Positions 9,525 through 12,752 of a stretch of 39,841 nt of DNA are shown here, one piece after another. The translations under genes and the position numbers were made by a program. The notes under the pieces were generated by a model. That model was not told the DNA's origin and did no database searches. It saw only the letters and a list, made by a program, of their open reading frames with translations. This DNA comes from Candidatus Kuenenia stuttgartensis. Lineage in GTDB: Bacteria; Planctomycetota; Planctomycetia; Planctomycetales; Planctomycetaceae. The first letter of the stretch is position 1, and each line of letters opens with the position of its first letter. The stretch covers positions 1 to 39,841 of the forward strand of contig CAMDRI010000033.1 of the NCBI GenBank assembly GCA_945906725.1, in the 5' to 3' direction.

Positions 9525-9652
9525 GTAGCCCTGTCGCTCCGCGACAGGAAAGCCGAACGCTTCACCGACGTCGCTTACGAGAAGAATACTCAACAACCAA
9601 TCAAAGTCTTCCCAGCGATCGGAACTCCTGTCGCGGAACGACAGAGCGTCTA
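9525..9652. repeat. Inverted pair of family-B palindromic repeats
   Basis: The left copy has CTGTCGCTCCGCGACAGG at 9531-9548 and the right copy has its inverse at 9627-9644, differing at one base. Each arm is itself a small hairpin (CTGTCGC with GCGACAG). The left copy opens GTAGCC at 9525-9530; the right copy reads CTAGACGC on the minus strand, and its TAG (9650-9652) is the stop codon of the thioesterase gene. The element fills most of the gap between the convergent hemE and thioesterase genes. Related single copies lie at about 38182-38215 and, more diverged, near 39340-39366. Confidence 0.75.
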
Positions 9653-10039
9653 GCCGCACATCTGCAACAACCCCGCAGGCATCCGTTGCAGCTTGCCAGT
9701 CCGATCCACGCAAGCCAACGTGCTGTGCCCAGTGCAGAGCAGCGCGCCATCGCGGAACAGTTCGTACCCGTGTTCGAGCTTCGCCTCAGTCGCCGTCGTG
9801 ATCGTTGTCCGCAGAGTCAGCAAGTCGTCATACCTCGCCGGCACGCGATAGCGGCAATCAAGCTTCACGACAACGAGAAACAAGCCTCCCTCTTCCATCG
9901 CTCGATAGTCGCCCCCTTGAGCGCGAAACAACTCGGTCCGTCCGACCTCAAAGTAGCTAAAGTAATTCGCATGATGCAAAAACCCCATCGCGTCGGTTTC
10001 GGAATATCGCACCCGAATTTGAATATCGTGATGTCGCAT
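9650..10039 (-). CDS. YbgC/FadM-type acyl-CoA thioesterase (hotdog fold)
   Basis: 129 residues, normal for the 4-hydroxybenzoyl-CoA thioesterase/YbgC group. The N-terminal segment [23 protein letters not shown] contains the characteristic Y-x-x-TD-x-M-G-x-x-HH-x-x-Y signature with the catalytic Asp (TDAMG). The rest follows the hotdog pattern ([31 protein letters not shown] end). The enzyme should hydrolyse acyl- or aroyl-CoA thioesters in the cytosol. It lies 100 nt downstream of the aldehyde dehydrogenase gene on the same strand, with a hairpin repeat between, so cotranscription is possible but not certain. The stop codon TAG is part of a repeat. Confidence 0.9.
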
Positions 10040-10062
10040 GGTTTCGTCGAAGTTTGATTTTT

Positions 10063-10120
10063 AGACCACGAAGTCACAAAGGCAGGAAGGACGGATTTGT
10101 GCCTTTGTCCTTTGTGGTCT
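10063..10120. repeat. Inverted repeat of the ACCACGAAG type (family H)
   Basis: The arm at 10063-10084 (AGACCACGAAGTCACAAAGG) pairs with 10100-10120 (CCTTTGTCCTTTGTGGTCT), mostly in register with a few mismatches. It sits between the aldehyde dehydrogenase stop and the thioesterase start on the minus strand. In RNA it would form a long stem that could attenuate or protect the transcript between these genes. Confidence 0.7.
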
Positions 10121-10139
10121 CTATCCATCCGTAGGCGGG

Positions 10140-11576
10140 TCAATGGCTCGGTGGCTGAGTGTTCTGGAATGCCCTTGCCCGGAACAGGAAGTCGATGATG
10201 TTGCCTTCGTGGGGCTGCATCCAGTGGAGTTGGATTGTCTTCACTTCGCCGATATTCAGCCGGTCGATGTTGGTGGCGTCGAGCAGTTGTTTCGACCAAT
10301 TTTCGTCTTTCGTCAGGCACGAGGCGACCAGCGTGCCGCCGATTTTCGAGAGCATGTCTTTCTGCTCGCACTTCACGACTGAGACGAACGGGAACATGTA
10401 CTCGGTGTTGGCAACGGCCGGTTCGGTGCTGGAGCAATGCACGACGGTCGGACGCAGGAAGTCGTATCGCTCGTGAGCGACATGGCGTTCTCCGTTGCGA
10501 TACTTGGCCGAAACCTCGGTTACTCCGGGAGCTTCCACCAATTCTTTGATCTGCGCGTTGATGGCTTTCGCTGCTCCGGGGACGGTGAACGCGGCGAGCG
10601 GCGACTTGGGATCGCTCATCGGCAGCGGAGCGATGGGGCCGAGCCGCTTGGCCAGCGCTTCGGCGATCTCTTCGGTGTGTCGTGAAGCCCAGATGCCGGA
10701 GCAACTGATACAGCTTCGGCCGCTGTTGGCGAAGACGCTTTCGGCCATCAAGTCGATGTACTTTTCCCACTGATCGACCATGTCGTCGCCGAACAGAATT
10801 TTCGAGAAACCCGGCCCGTGAGCCTGCACACGCGGGTTGCCGTGATAGCGTTCGACGGTCGGAGTGCCGCCGAAGATCATCGCTCGATTGCAGGTCTCGA
10901 GCACGGCGGCTCCGCATTCGGGACCGCCGGGATAAACGCAGAAGACTTCGCGCGGCACACCGGCTTGAGCAAACGCTTCGTACATGCGGTAGGGCGTCCA
11001 CGGCTCTTGCGGGCCAGGCTTGAGCACGAGACCGATCTGTAATGGGATGACCGGCATCCACAACGTATGCACGCCCGGCGAGTTTGACGGCAGCACCATT
11101 CCCAGCACATTCGTCTGAGCTTGATAGCTGACCATCACGCCTCGGCTCTCCATGCCGTAGCCCTTAGTCAGAATCTCCAGCGGCAGCCCACGCGTCAAAG
11201 CCTCCAGCGTGTGCCGCATGTTGCGAAGCACATAGGCGTTCTTCTTCATATTTCCGGCGCACATGTGCTCAGGAAGGCCGGTTGTCGCGGATTGCATGCG
11301 GCAGAACTCAGCCGGACTTTGCGTGCCATTGCCGAGCGGCAGGGTCGCGTTCTGGTAGAGGTCGGCGGCTTTCTCGGCCATGCTGCAAAGCTGATCGATG
11401 CTGAATTGGCGGAGGATGTCGCGCGCCTTGTTGGCCTTCCGCATATCCATCTTGATGATGCCGCCGTTGGCCTGATGGACGGTGGCGAGCACTTCGCCCG
11501 TCTCGAAATGGACAACTTTGTCCTTCTCCATTGACTCGTACGGCTGGCCCCAGCGGATCACGGGAATGTCGAGCAT
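10140..11576 (-). CDS. Aldehyde dehydrogenase-fold protein, EhpG/LuxC-like acyl reductase candidate
   Basis: 478 residues of the aldehyde dehydrogenase superfamily. The nucleotide-binding half includes NVLGMVLPSNSPGVHTLW (about 156-173) and LVLKPGPQEPWTPYRM. The catalytic cysteine is in NSGRSCISC (Cys289, with a second Cys at 292). The general-base region normally written ELGGK reads HGPGFSK (253-259), so the Glu of ordinary NAD-dependent aldehyde dehydrogenases is absent, as in acylating and acyl-reducing members. The gene follows an adenylating enzyme on the same strand after 75 nt and precedes a thioesterase. By analogy with EhpG it may reduce an acyl-adenylate or enzyme-bound acyl group to an aldehyde. 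The reaction direction and substrate are inferred. Confidence 0.85.
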   Translation of the reverse strand: MLDIPVIRWGQPYESMEKDKVVHFETGEVLATVHQANGGIIKMDMRKANKARDILRQFSIDQLCSMAEKAADLYQNATLPLGNGTQSPAEFCRMQSATTGLPEHMCAGNMKKNAYVLRNMRHTLEALTRGLPLEILTKGYGMESRGVMVSYQAQTNVLGMVLPSNSPGVHTLWMPVIPLQIGLVLKPGPQEPWTPYRMYEAFAQAGVPREVFCVYPGGPECGAAVLETCNRAMIFGGTPTVERYHGNPRVQAHGPGFSKILFGDDMVDQWEKYIDLMAESVFANSGRSCISCSGIWASRHTEEIAEALAKRLGPIAPLPMSDPKSPLAAFTVPGAAKAINAQIKELVEAPGVTEVSAKYRNGERHVAHERYDFLRPTVVHCSSTEPAVANTEYMFPFVSVVKCEQKDMLSKIGGTLVASCLTKDENWSKQLLDATNIDRLNIGEVKTIQLHWMQPHEGNIIDFLFRARAFQNTQPPSH

Positions 11577-11651
11577 TGTTCATCAATCCTGTTGTAAGAG
11601 TTTGAAAACGAAACCGGGGACTGACGCCCCCGCTCGCAATTAGATTGGTCG

Positions 11652-12752
11652 TTAGTAAACGCCGACCGTTGTTGTGGCGGCGAATTCGTGGAACGGCCGA
11701 GTGCCGCTGATGCCATCCCACGGGTATTTGTCGTGCGGCAATTCGCGTTCTCCTTCGTCTCGTTCCATGAAGCCGGGGACGAAGAGTTCTTTGGTCATCG
11801 TGTAGAGCTTCACACGGCCGGTCGCGCCGTAGGGGACGACTTGGTTGTAGTCCTCGAATTCGACTGTCTCGATGACGGCTCGTGGTTGCGGGGCGTAGTA
11901 GGTGATCTTGAAGTTGTCGGCGGGGTCAAACGGCTTGCCGCAGGCGAGTCCCATCAGCGTGTTGCCGTAGGTCGGCGTGATGTACACGTTCGGGCCGAGT
12001 AGTTCCTCGCGGCAAAAGCGATACCACTGCGGAGTGAACTCGGTGCCGCCGGCGAAGATCCCCTTGATGCCGGACTCTTCGATGCTGCACCCCTTGTCCA
12101 TGAGCTTCAGGGCCAGAGCTTCGAGCAGTTTCGGTGTCGCAAAGGCGCACTTGATGTCGTGACCGGCGGAGAGAATCGTCACGGCTTGGTCGATGACATG
12201 ATCGGCATACGCCTTCACGCCGGAGATGTCTCCTTTCTTCAAAAGCTTCACAACCCAACGTGGGTCGAGGTCCACGCAGAAACAGATGCCGCCGCGATGT
12301 TGGGCGAGGTGCTCAACCGCGAGTCGCAAGCGACGCGGGCCGGACGGGCCAAGCATCAGCCAGTTCGAGCCGCGTGGAAAATACTCATCGGGCAGCGTGT
12401 CTGAGAAATTCTCGTAGTCGATCCAGTGATCTTCAATGACCATGCGACTCTTCGGGATACCAGTCGTGCCGCCGGTCTCGAAGACGTACACCGGCTTGTC
12501 GGCGAGCCCCTTCGGAACCCAGCGACGGATTGGGCCGCCACGGAGCCATTCGTCCTCGAAGTTCGGGAACTTCTTCAAGTCCTCGAAGCAGTTGACCTCT
12601 TTGAGCGGGTCGAATTTGAACTCCTTCTTTTTCTCCAGCCAGAACGGGCAGCCGGTCGCATCGCTGAAGTGCCAGCGGATGGTTTGGCGGGTGTGTTCGT
12701 CGAGCAATTCCTTGGCTTTAGCCAGTTTGGCGGCGAGGGCAGTGTCACTCAC
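11652..12752 (-). CDS. EhpF-like acyl-adenylating enzyme lacking the ANL C-terminal domain
   Basis: 366 residues (about 41 kDa), starting at GTG 12750-12752 with AGGAG about 11 nt upstream. It resembles phenylacetate-CoA ligase/LuxE-like adenylating enzymes: the P-loop TGGTTGIPK is at 93-101, GIFAGGTEFTPQWYRF lies in the middle, TPTYGNTLMG is the A5-like motif, and TGRVKLYTMTKELFVPG sits near the end. The mobile C-terminal domain needed for thioester formation is missing, as described for EhpF of the Pantoea phenazine cluster, which has the same size. It may therefore only make an acyl-AMP and hand it to the neighbouring aldehyde dehydrogenase. The substrate is unknown; no phenazine genes are present in the window. 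Confidence 0.82.
   Translation of the reverse strand: MSDTALAAKLAKAKELLDEHTRQTIRWHFSDATGCPFWLEKKKEFKFDPLKEVNCFEDLKKFPNFEDEWLRGGPIRRWVPKGLADKPVYVFETGGTTGIPKSRMVIEDHWIDYENFSDTLPDEYFPRGSNWLMLGPSGPRRLRLAVEHLAQHRGGICFCVDLDPRWVVKLLKKGDISGVKAYADHVIDQAVTILSAGHDIKCAFATPKLLEALALKLMDKGCSIEESGIKGIFAGGTEFTPQWYRFCREELLGPNVYITPTYGNTLMGLACGKPFDPADNFKITYYAPQPRAVIETVEFEDYNQVVPYGATGRVKLYTMTKELFVPGFMERDEGERELPHDKYPWDGISGTRPFHEFAATTTVGVY

What the first reader, a model, noticed from the sequence alone, without database searches (positions are those of the whole stretch)
9650..12752. Possible two-protein carboxylic acid reductase (EhpF/EhpG-like) with a thioesterase
A 366-residue adenylating enzyme without the C-terminal ANL domain is followed by an aldehyde dehydrogenase whose general-base ELGGK motif is HGPGFSK, then by a YbgC-like thioesterase, all on the minus strand. 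The size and domain loss match EhpF, proposed with EhpG to reduce a phenazine carboxylate to the aldehyde through an acyl-AMP. No phenazine genes are in the window, so this would be a free-standing system with an unknown acid. The sequence shows the motifs and the gene order; the reaction is inferred.
Basis: partly seen in the sequence, partly recalled or inferred. Interest (0 to 1): 0.72.

Follow-up and report, generated by a model that had tools for sequence, protein, structure and literature searches.

The report
Planctomycete two-protein aryl acid reductase
Two neighbouring genes look like a split enzyme that turns an aromatic acid into an aldehyde; such split enzymes are already known, but this pair travels through one bacterial phylum together with other genes that suggest an unstudied aromatic pathway, and the thioesterase next to it looks like a bystander.

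Summary
The 366-aa protein matches EhpF by sequence (PDB 3l2k, E 1.5e-41) and predicted fold. In the 478-aa aldehyde dehydrogenase, Cys289 and the GPG of HGPGFSK are invariant in 15 of 15 aligned sequences, including partners from phenazine, Streptomyces and haloarchaeal loci. A two-protein carboxylic acid reductase is not new: GriC/GriD is in print (passages).

The thioesterase adjoins the pair only in the window and its closest relatives. And the pair is not free-standing. Among 392 planctomycete genomes, ligase, dehydrogenase and a HemN-like radical-SAM gene occur in 88, 86 and 87, all three in 82; ligase and dehydrogenase lie within 1 kb in 73 of 85. A UbiC-like chorismate lyase occurs in 66, all among the 88. 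Fe-alcohol dehydrogenase, radical-SAM, UbiC-like and halogenase-like orthologues exist in the window's genome.

Best reading: a GriC/GriD-type reductase, probably acting on a chorismate-derived, hydroxybenzoate-type acid, in an uncharacterised phylum-wide pathway. Chemistry, substrate and product are inferred.

The parts
11652..12752 (-). adenylating enzyme, EhpF/GriC type, 366 aa, no C-terminal ANL domain
12444..12479 (-). ATP/phosphate-binding loop ETGGTTGIPKSR (residues 92-103; role recalled)
   Evidence: position computed; E92, G95, T96, G98 and P100 invariant in 18 of 18 aligned sequences
11655..11663 (-). C-terminal -GVY tail of the ligase (residues 364-366), conserved but low-confidence in the model
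   Evidence: GVY or GLY at the end in 83 of 85 ligase ORFs of the fetched loci and GVY in 31 of 31 rows of A5; pLDDT below 50 for 360-366
10140..11576 (-). aldehyde dehydrogenase-fold reductase, EhpG/GriD type, 478 aa
10800..10820 (-). HGPGFSK (residues 253-259) at the place of the usual ELGGK general-base motif
10710..10712 (-). candidate catalytic cysteine, Cys289 in NSGRSCIS
   Evidence: C289 invariant in 15 of 15 and 30 of 30
9650..10039 (-). YbgC/FadM-like thioesterase, 129 aa; adjoins the pair only in the window and its closest relatives, judged NOT part of the conserved system

Best explanation
The pair is a two-protein carboxylic acid reductase of the EhpF/GriC + EhpG/GriD type. Inferred steps: the ligase uses ATP to make an acyl-adenylate; lacking the C-terminal ANL domain it does not make a CoA thioester but passes the acyl group to Cys289 of the dehydrogenase; NAD(P)H reduces the thioacyl enzyme and the aldehyde leaves, the GPG motif in place of the general-base Glu keeping the acyl enzyme from being hydrolysed. 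The conserved partners suggest that the acid is a chorismate-derived hydroxybenzoate or a relative (UbiC-like lyase) and that the Fe-alcohol dehydrogenase takes the aldehyde to the alcohol, with a HemN-like radical-SAM enzyme and a CmlS-like flavoenzyme modifying the compound. Shown: sequence families, invariant residues, fold, gene linkage and co-occurrence, and that these partners exist in the window's genome. Inferred: every reaction, the substrate and the product.
For: EhpF by sequence and fold: (EhpF chains take ranks 1-5, E 1.7e-28 to 5.0e-27; then PaaK-type ligases). Dehydrogenase invariants shared with partners in an E. coli phenazine plasmid, Streptomyces goshikiensis and Halalkalicoccus. 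Co-occurrence at E <= 1e-60: 85 of 392 genomes have both, 3 ligase only, 1 dehydrogenase only; with the radical-SAM gene, all three in 82 of a union of 91, in 26 of the 29 families with any of the three. UbiC-like lyase: 66 of 392, all 66 inside the 88 ligase genomes. Its fully conserved columns all carry the E. coli UbiC residue (13 of 13, 12 of 12 in the repeat; 60 shuffled UbiC sequences gave 0-9, the reversed one 3); hhalign with UbiC E 1.2e-4, probability 54. Gene order ligase, dehydrogenase, Fe-ADH, radical SAM in 18 of 74 loci, with propeller, UbiC-like and flavoenzyme genes and the symporter as well in 4. Partners in the window's genome: radical SAM and UbiC-like side by side on C20, Fe-ADH on C158, flavoenzyme on C240. 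GriC/GriD precedent: PMC10179220, passages.
Against: No activity data. The dehydrogenase is only 22-25% identical to the three non-planctomycete partners, so direction and substrate could differ. 22 of the 88 ligase genomes lack a detected UbiC-like gene. A sodium:solute symporter stands directly upstream of the ligase in 19 of 74 loci, the haloarchaeal one included, which could mean that the acid is imported, not made. In a separate draw of 61 family genomes, a strong dehydrogenase match is found in 56 (4 have none, G403 a contig-edge fragment) and a strong radical-SAM match in 56 (G395, G397, G416 none; G403, G434 partial). In 9 of 85 genomes ligase and dehydrogenase are over 10 kb apart or on other contigs. 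Shared ancestry inflates the Fisher values. The UbiC-like proteins reach no Pfam family.
Confidence: 0.58

Rival explanations
1. The ligase makes an acyl-CoA (or acyl-protein) and the dehydrogenase is a CoA-dependent acyl reductase, with a thioesterase as a proof-reader; the loss of the C-terminal domain is made up by another protein.
For: Next-best fold matches are PaaK-type ligases. A PaaK-like ligase and a 4HBT thioesterase are in some distant gene runs, and weak matches to the window's thioesterase (34-60 bits) lie 4-8 kb downstream on the same strand in 11 loci. Acylating methylmalonate-semialdehyde dehydrogenase is the top NCBIfam match of the dehydrogenase, far below its cut-off.
Against: The 18 aligned ligases all stop at the same C-terminus without a further domain. 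The window's own thioesterase looks like a bystander. The PaaK-like gene has its own C-terminal domain.
Confidence: 0.15
2. The module works on an imported aromatic or other acid, perhaps for breakdown: the sodium:solute symporter, a TonB-type receptor and a MarR-like regulator serve uptake and control.
For: Sodium:solute symporter directly upstream of the ligase in 19 of 74 loci, including the haloarchaeal plasmid locus L034; a TonB-siderophore-type receptor cluster in three loci; a MarR-like gene (sequence; family by recall).
Against: The UbiC-like lyase, found only in ligase genomes, is a biosynthetic entry from chorismate if it is active. EhpF and GriC belong to biosynthesis.
Confidence: 0.18
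3. The acid is not aromatic: a fatty or polyketide acid is reduced, as LuxE/LuxC do in luminous bacteria (LuxE/LuxC recalled).
For: LuxE and LuxC have similar sizes and a similar split of labour (recalled). A chlorinated fatty acid is reported from a planctomycete (PMC12078418, passages).
Against: No LuxC or LuxE Pfam match at E up to 1 (HMMER's filters drop most matches above about 0.1). The nearest described relatives act on aromatic acids. The UbiC-like partner points to aromatics.
Confidence: 0.09

Closest known systems
GriC/GriD, carboxylic acid reductase of grixazone biosynthesis, Streptomyces griseus (Suzuki 2007, not held; known here from passages of PMC10179220)
   Same: Two proteins: an AMP-binding protein making the acyl-AMP of 3-amino-4-hydroxybenzoate and a second protein reducing it to the aldehyde.
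   Different: GriC/GriD belong to an antibiotic cluster; here the pair is in nearly every sampled genome of a bacterial family and linked to other genes. GriC/GriD sequences were not fetched; Streptomyces homologues were aligned instead.
EhpF (and EhpG) of D-alanylgriseoluteic acid biosynthesis, Enterobacter/Pantoea agglomerans Eh1087
   Same: Similar length (PDB chains of 366 and 369 residues), sequence match E 1.5e-41 and same predicted fold; a homologous pair sits in a phenazine cluster on an E. coli plasmid.
   Different: No phenazine core genes among the annotated members of the recurring planctomycete run. The dehydrogenase is 23% identical to the phenazine-cluster partner. EhpG itself was not fetched.
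UbiC, chorismate lyase (E. coli)
   Same: All fully conserved columns of the partner family carry UbiC's residue (13 of 13; 12 of 12 against 0-9 in 60 shuffles), among them the Arg, Gly and Glu recalled as active-site residues.
   Different: Overall similarity is very low (hhalign E 1.2e-4, probability 54).
LuxE/LuxC fatty acid reductase (recalled)
   Same: Works alike in outline: activation and reduction on separate proteins.
   Different: No LuxE/LuxC Pfam match.

Membership tests
EhpF/GriC-type adenylating enzyme | similarity to EhpF over most of the chain | tested here: met
   phmmer E 1.5e-41, residues 12-336 of 366
EhpF/GriC-type adenylating enzyme | same fold, no C-terminal ANL domain | tested here: met
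   model pLDDT 84.8; EhpF chains are the best five matches; 366 aa, no C-terminal domain family
EhpF/GriC-type adenylating enzyme | forms an acyl-adenylate | not testable with these tools
   needs an enzyme assay
EhpG/GriD-type reductase | ALDH fold with Cys and GPG motif shared with partners of EhpF-like ligases | tested here: met
   C289 and GPG254-256 invariant in 15 of 15 including three non-planctomycete partners; ALDH fold
EhpG/GriD-type reductase | encoded next to the ligase | tested here: met
   within 1 kb in 73 of 85 genomes with both, 68 of 80 named loci
EhpG/GriD-type reductase | direct alignment with EhpG and GriD themselves | not tested
   their sequences were not fetched; homologues on plasmids were used
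single-chain carboxylic acid reductase (A-PCP-R; recalled) | carrier and NAD_binding_4 reductase domains in one chain with the ligase | tested here: not met
   no such domains in the pair; none of 86 ORFs with a ligase match holds a match to the dehydrogenase
LuxE/LuxC | Pfam LuxE and LuxC families | tested here: not met
   absent at E up to 1
chorismate lyase (partner gene in the same genome, not in the window) | conserved UbiC residues | tested here: met
   13 of 13, 12 of 12 against at most 9 in 60 shuffles; hhalign E 1.2e-4
chorismate lyase (partner gene in the same genome, not in the window) | curated family match | tested here: not met
   no Pfam family for the L100, L081 and L195 members

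The most novel reading that the evidence does not exclude
The pair is one step of an undescribed, near-core planctomycete pathway that turns chorismate into a modified hydroxybenzaldehyde or hydroxybenzyl alcohol (UbiC-like lyase, two-protein reductase, Fe-alcohol dehydrogenase, HemN-like radical-SAM enzyme, halogenase-like flavoenzyme): a conserved small molecule or cofactor of the phylum, not an accessory antibiotic.
Probability: 0.3. Interest if true: 0.82.

Novelty: new variant of a known kind. Interest (0 to 1): 0.58.

Why it matters
Split carboxylic acid reductases are known from antibiotic clusters. Here the same pair is found in 28 of 28 genomes of the window's family in one draw (dehydrogenase strong in 56 of 61 in another) and in 85 of 392 across the phylum, with partners that turn an open question (which acid?) into a testable one (a chorismate-derived hydroxybenzoate). 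It also offers candidate genes for planctomycete aromatic chemistry; a 2025 review says that the genes for alichondrichlorin, an ester of 4-hydroxybenzoic acid, are unknown (PMC12078418, passages). No link to that compound was tested.

Tried and rejected
Rejected: the window's thioesterase as a part. In 61 family genomes it adjoins the pair only in G000 and G432, and in the 80 named loci only in L115 and L116. In G216 the orthologue lies about 3.6 kb upstream of the ligase on the other strand. In 10 relatives fetched it lies elsewhere, in 5 beside a shared gene that looks like purF (PurF by recall from first residues legible in 3 of the 5). Other congeners were not checked. Against this rejection: a different 4HBT thioesterase stands in distant gene runs.

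Rejected: ligase-dehydrogenase fusion (none of 86 ligase ORFs holds a dehydrogenase match). Rejected: LuxE/LuxC membership. Left open: which acid, direction, role of the radical-SAM enzyme.

Dropped before the counts: the E <= 1e-60 cut leaves 88 of the 121 genomes that match the ligase at E <= 0.001. Among the dropped kind, 12 loci read (L103-L114; 26-34% identical) have no such dehydrogenase nearby (12 of 12); in 7 of the 11 for which one search shows a row, a gene cluster appears whose L105 member is a Male-sterility-type NAD_binding_4 reductase.

Led nowhere: promoter scan (0 found, 1.2 expected by shuffles) and terminator scan (5 found, 4.6 expected); Rfam and tRNA scans of the window empty. 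Papers by Suzuki 2007, Bera 2010 and Vitorino 2025 are not held. Of papers I saw passages of PMC10179220, PMC3175449, PMC11429834 and PMC12078418; all others only as search listings. 'Not found in print' rests on listings of searches in an open-access library; one search showed 15 of 139.

Limits: gene calls in other genomes are simple ORFs chosen by homology. The counts use handle lists copied by hand.
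Full report
What is there. Three minus-strand ORFs at 11652-12752, 10140-11576 and 9650-10039 encode an adenylating enzyme, an aldehyde dehydrogenase and a YbgC/FadM-like thioesterase. hemE lies convergent at 8460-9515 and a nucleoside hydrolase divergent at 13484-14452.

The ligase. Pfam AMP-binding is only weakly matched (E 7.4e-5, below cut-off), but EhpF chains 3l2k and 3hgu match at E 1.5e-41 and 1.6e-41 over residues 12-336. A model built from the window protein and 30 homologues of named loci has mean pLDDT 84.8, and five EhpF chains are its five best Foldseek matches (E 1.7e-28 to 5.0e-27), followed by PaaK-type ligases. 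No C-terminal ANL domain is present. A further detail: the protein ends in GVY or GLY in 83 of 85 ligase ORFs of the fetched loci (the other two end GVH and AGG) and in GVY in 31 of 31 rows of A5, while the tail is predicted with low confidence (residues 360-366). A conserved but flexible tail would suit docking or acyl transfer; that is a guess.

The dehydrogenase. Pfam Aldedh E 6.1e-23, mean pLDDT 91.0 and an ALDH fold. Cys289 and G254-P255-G256 are invariant in 15 of 15 aligned sequences, which include the partners from an E. coli phenazine plasmid, Streptomyces goshikiensis and Halalkalicoccus, and in 30 of 30 of a second alignment. That it removes the hydrolytic general base is inferred from ALDH knowledge.

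Precedent. [quoted passage not shown] In public plasmids, 28 records hold an EhpF-like ligase; among the 20 listed some are labelled 'arylcarboxylate reductase' or 'phenazine antibiotic biosynthesis protein' (labels only). One of them, in Streptomyces sp. NBC_00316, has a polyketide synthase and no dehydrogenase directly after it. PMC3175449 (passages) says that EhpF-O, apart from the transporter EhpJ, convert phenazine-1,6-dicarboxylate to D-alanylgriseoluteic acid.

How widespread. Of 392 planctomycete genomes drawn by the tool, 121 match the ligase at E <= 0.001. At E <= 1e-60, 88 have the ligase, 86 the dehydrogenase and 87 a HemN-like radical-SAM gene. Ligase and dehydrogenase are together in 85, ligase alone in 3 (G302, G312, G314; 79, 62 and 80% complete), dehydrogenase alone in 1 (G383); all three in 82 of a union of 91, in 26 of 29 families with any. 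The 28 genomes of the window's family in this draw have all three. Fisher values are about 1e-76 to 1e-81 but ignore shared ancestry. In a separate draw of 61 family genomes the dehydrogenase is strong in 56 (none in G395, G401, G405, G433, an edge fragment in G403) and the radical SAM in 56. The gap between ligase and dehydrogenase is at most 1 kb in 73 of 85, 1-10 kb in 3, larger or on another contig in 9. In the single-contig genomes G024, G105 and G307 the two are 1-3.6 megabases apart yet both kept. In a second, named set of 80 loci (Schlesneria, Gimesia, Rhodopirellula, Pirellula and other planctomycetes; the tool kept the best 80 of 575), the dehydrogenase follows within 1 kb in 68; 4 have no room on the contig; 8 do not have it there (one of these, L176, has it upstream on the other strand).

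The thioesterase. In the draw of 61 family genomes, 60 have a clear orthologue (E <= 1e-30; the exception is G408), but it adjoins the pair only in G000 and G432, and in L115 and L116 of the named set. In G216 it lies about 3.6 kb upstream on the other strand. In 10 relatives fetched it lies elsewhere, in 5 beside a PurF-like gene. It looks like a bystander. A different 4HBT thioesterase does belong to distant runs: weak matches (34-60 bits) 4-8 kb downstream on the same strand in 11 loci, and such a gene lies beside the radical SAM and UbiC-like genes in the window's genome.

The wider module. In distant planctomycetes an ordered gene run recurs. Of 74 loci with a row, the symporter is directly upstream of the ligase in 19 (one of them haloarchaeal); ligase, dehydrogenase, Fe-alcohol dehydrogenase follow in order in 22, with the radical SAM in 18, and with propeller protein, UbiC-like and flavoenzyme genes as well in 4 (L075, L081, L085, L098). 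Many rows are cut by contig ends, and in the window's own family the run is broken up. Upstream stand two PQQ/BamB-type propeller proteins; downstream in some a 4HBT thioesterase, EamA, PaaK-like ligase and a LolD/FtsX-type transporter. Orthologues in the window's genome: radical SAM at C20:6700-8100 and UbiC-like at C20:6125-6655 with a second thioesterase beside them; Fe-alcohol dehydrogenase (54%) and propeller at C158; flavoenzyme at C240:1621-2811, 50%. In the congener G432, Fe-alcohol dehydrogenase, propeller, thioesterase, UbiC-like and radical SAM lie on one contig within about 9 kb (L197).

The UbiC-like protein. It matches no Pfam family. A profile of 19 members matches PDB 2nwi at E 6.9e-5 (that this has a chorismate-lyase-like fold is recalled) and E. 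coli UbiC at E 1.2e-4, probability 54, which alone is weak. Aligned with UbiC, all fully conserved family columns carry UbiC's residue: 13 of 13 (P23, L30, M35, T36, R77, L81, G91, P114, G116, L119, G140, R141, E156), 12 of 12 in a repeat, where 60 shuffled UbiC sequences reached 0-9 and the reversed sequence 3. It occurs in 66 of 392 genomes, all 66 among the 88 with the ligase; 22 ligase genomes lack it, so a part of the phylum may use another source of acid. This is the best evidence here on the substrate; the symporter is the best evidence for an imported one.

Other partners. The radical-SAM proteins keep CxxxCxxC in 27 of 27 checked, and the flavoenzymes WxWxIP in 16 of 16 (that this motif marks flavin halogenases is recalled). 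The nearest NCBIfam model of the flavoenzyme is CmlS, well below its cut-off. Substrates are unknown.

Judgement. The chemistry of the pair is a known kind; the phylum-wide distribution, the conserved partners and the likely chorismate-derived acid are the new part. Listings of searches showed no paper that describes this module, within an open-access library only.

Noticed in passing
L103-L114, e.g. L105:8337-9536: More distant EhpF-like ligases (26-34% identical) lack the dehydrogenase (12 of 12); in 7 of the 11 loci with a row a reductase cluster of the Male-sterility NAD_binding_4 type is near, and L105 also has SCP2, MMPL, U32-peptidase, cytochrome b and multihaem cytochrome genes. Possibly the same ligase with another reductase partner.
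   Followed up: partly
G303 (L086), G368 (L093), G372: Here the dehydrogenase is 58-59% identical to the window's although the ligase is only about 50-53%; other loci with ligases of that identity have dehydrogenases of about 40-46%: two dehydrogenase subtypes, perhaps exchanged between lineages.
   Followed up: no
L034 (NC_014299.1:254447-267469): A haloarchaeal plasmid has the same order sodium:solute symporter, EhpF-like ligase, aldehyde dehydrogenase, as many planctomycetes.
   Followed up: partly
L031 (NZ_CP076707.1:2010-19044): An E. coli plasmid holds a phenazine cluster with an EhpF-like ligase and a dehydrogenase next to it.
   Followed up: no
window 17390-18553 and 1818-2822: An aldo/keto reductase and a fumarylacetoacetate-hydrolase-family gene lie in the same window, on the same strand as the pair but far from it; no linkage tested.
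   Followed up: no
window 5180-8302: 1040-aa protein with a Ser/Thr kinase domain and a right-handed beta-helix region in one chain.
   Followed up: no
L086:509-2713; same cluster in L090 and L093: A TonB-dependent siderophore-type receptor (annotated in L086 only) stands near the head of the gene run in three loci.
   Followed up: partly
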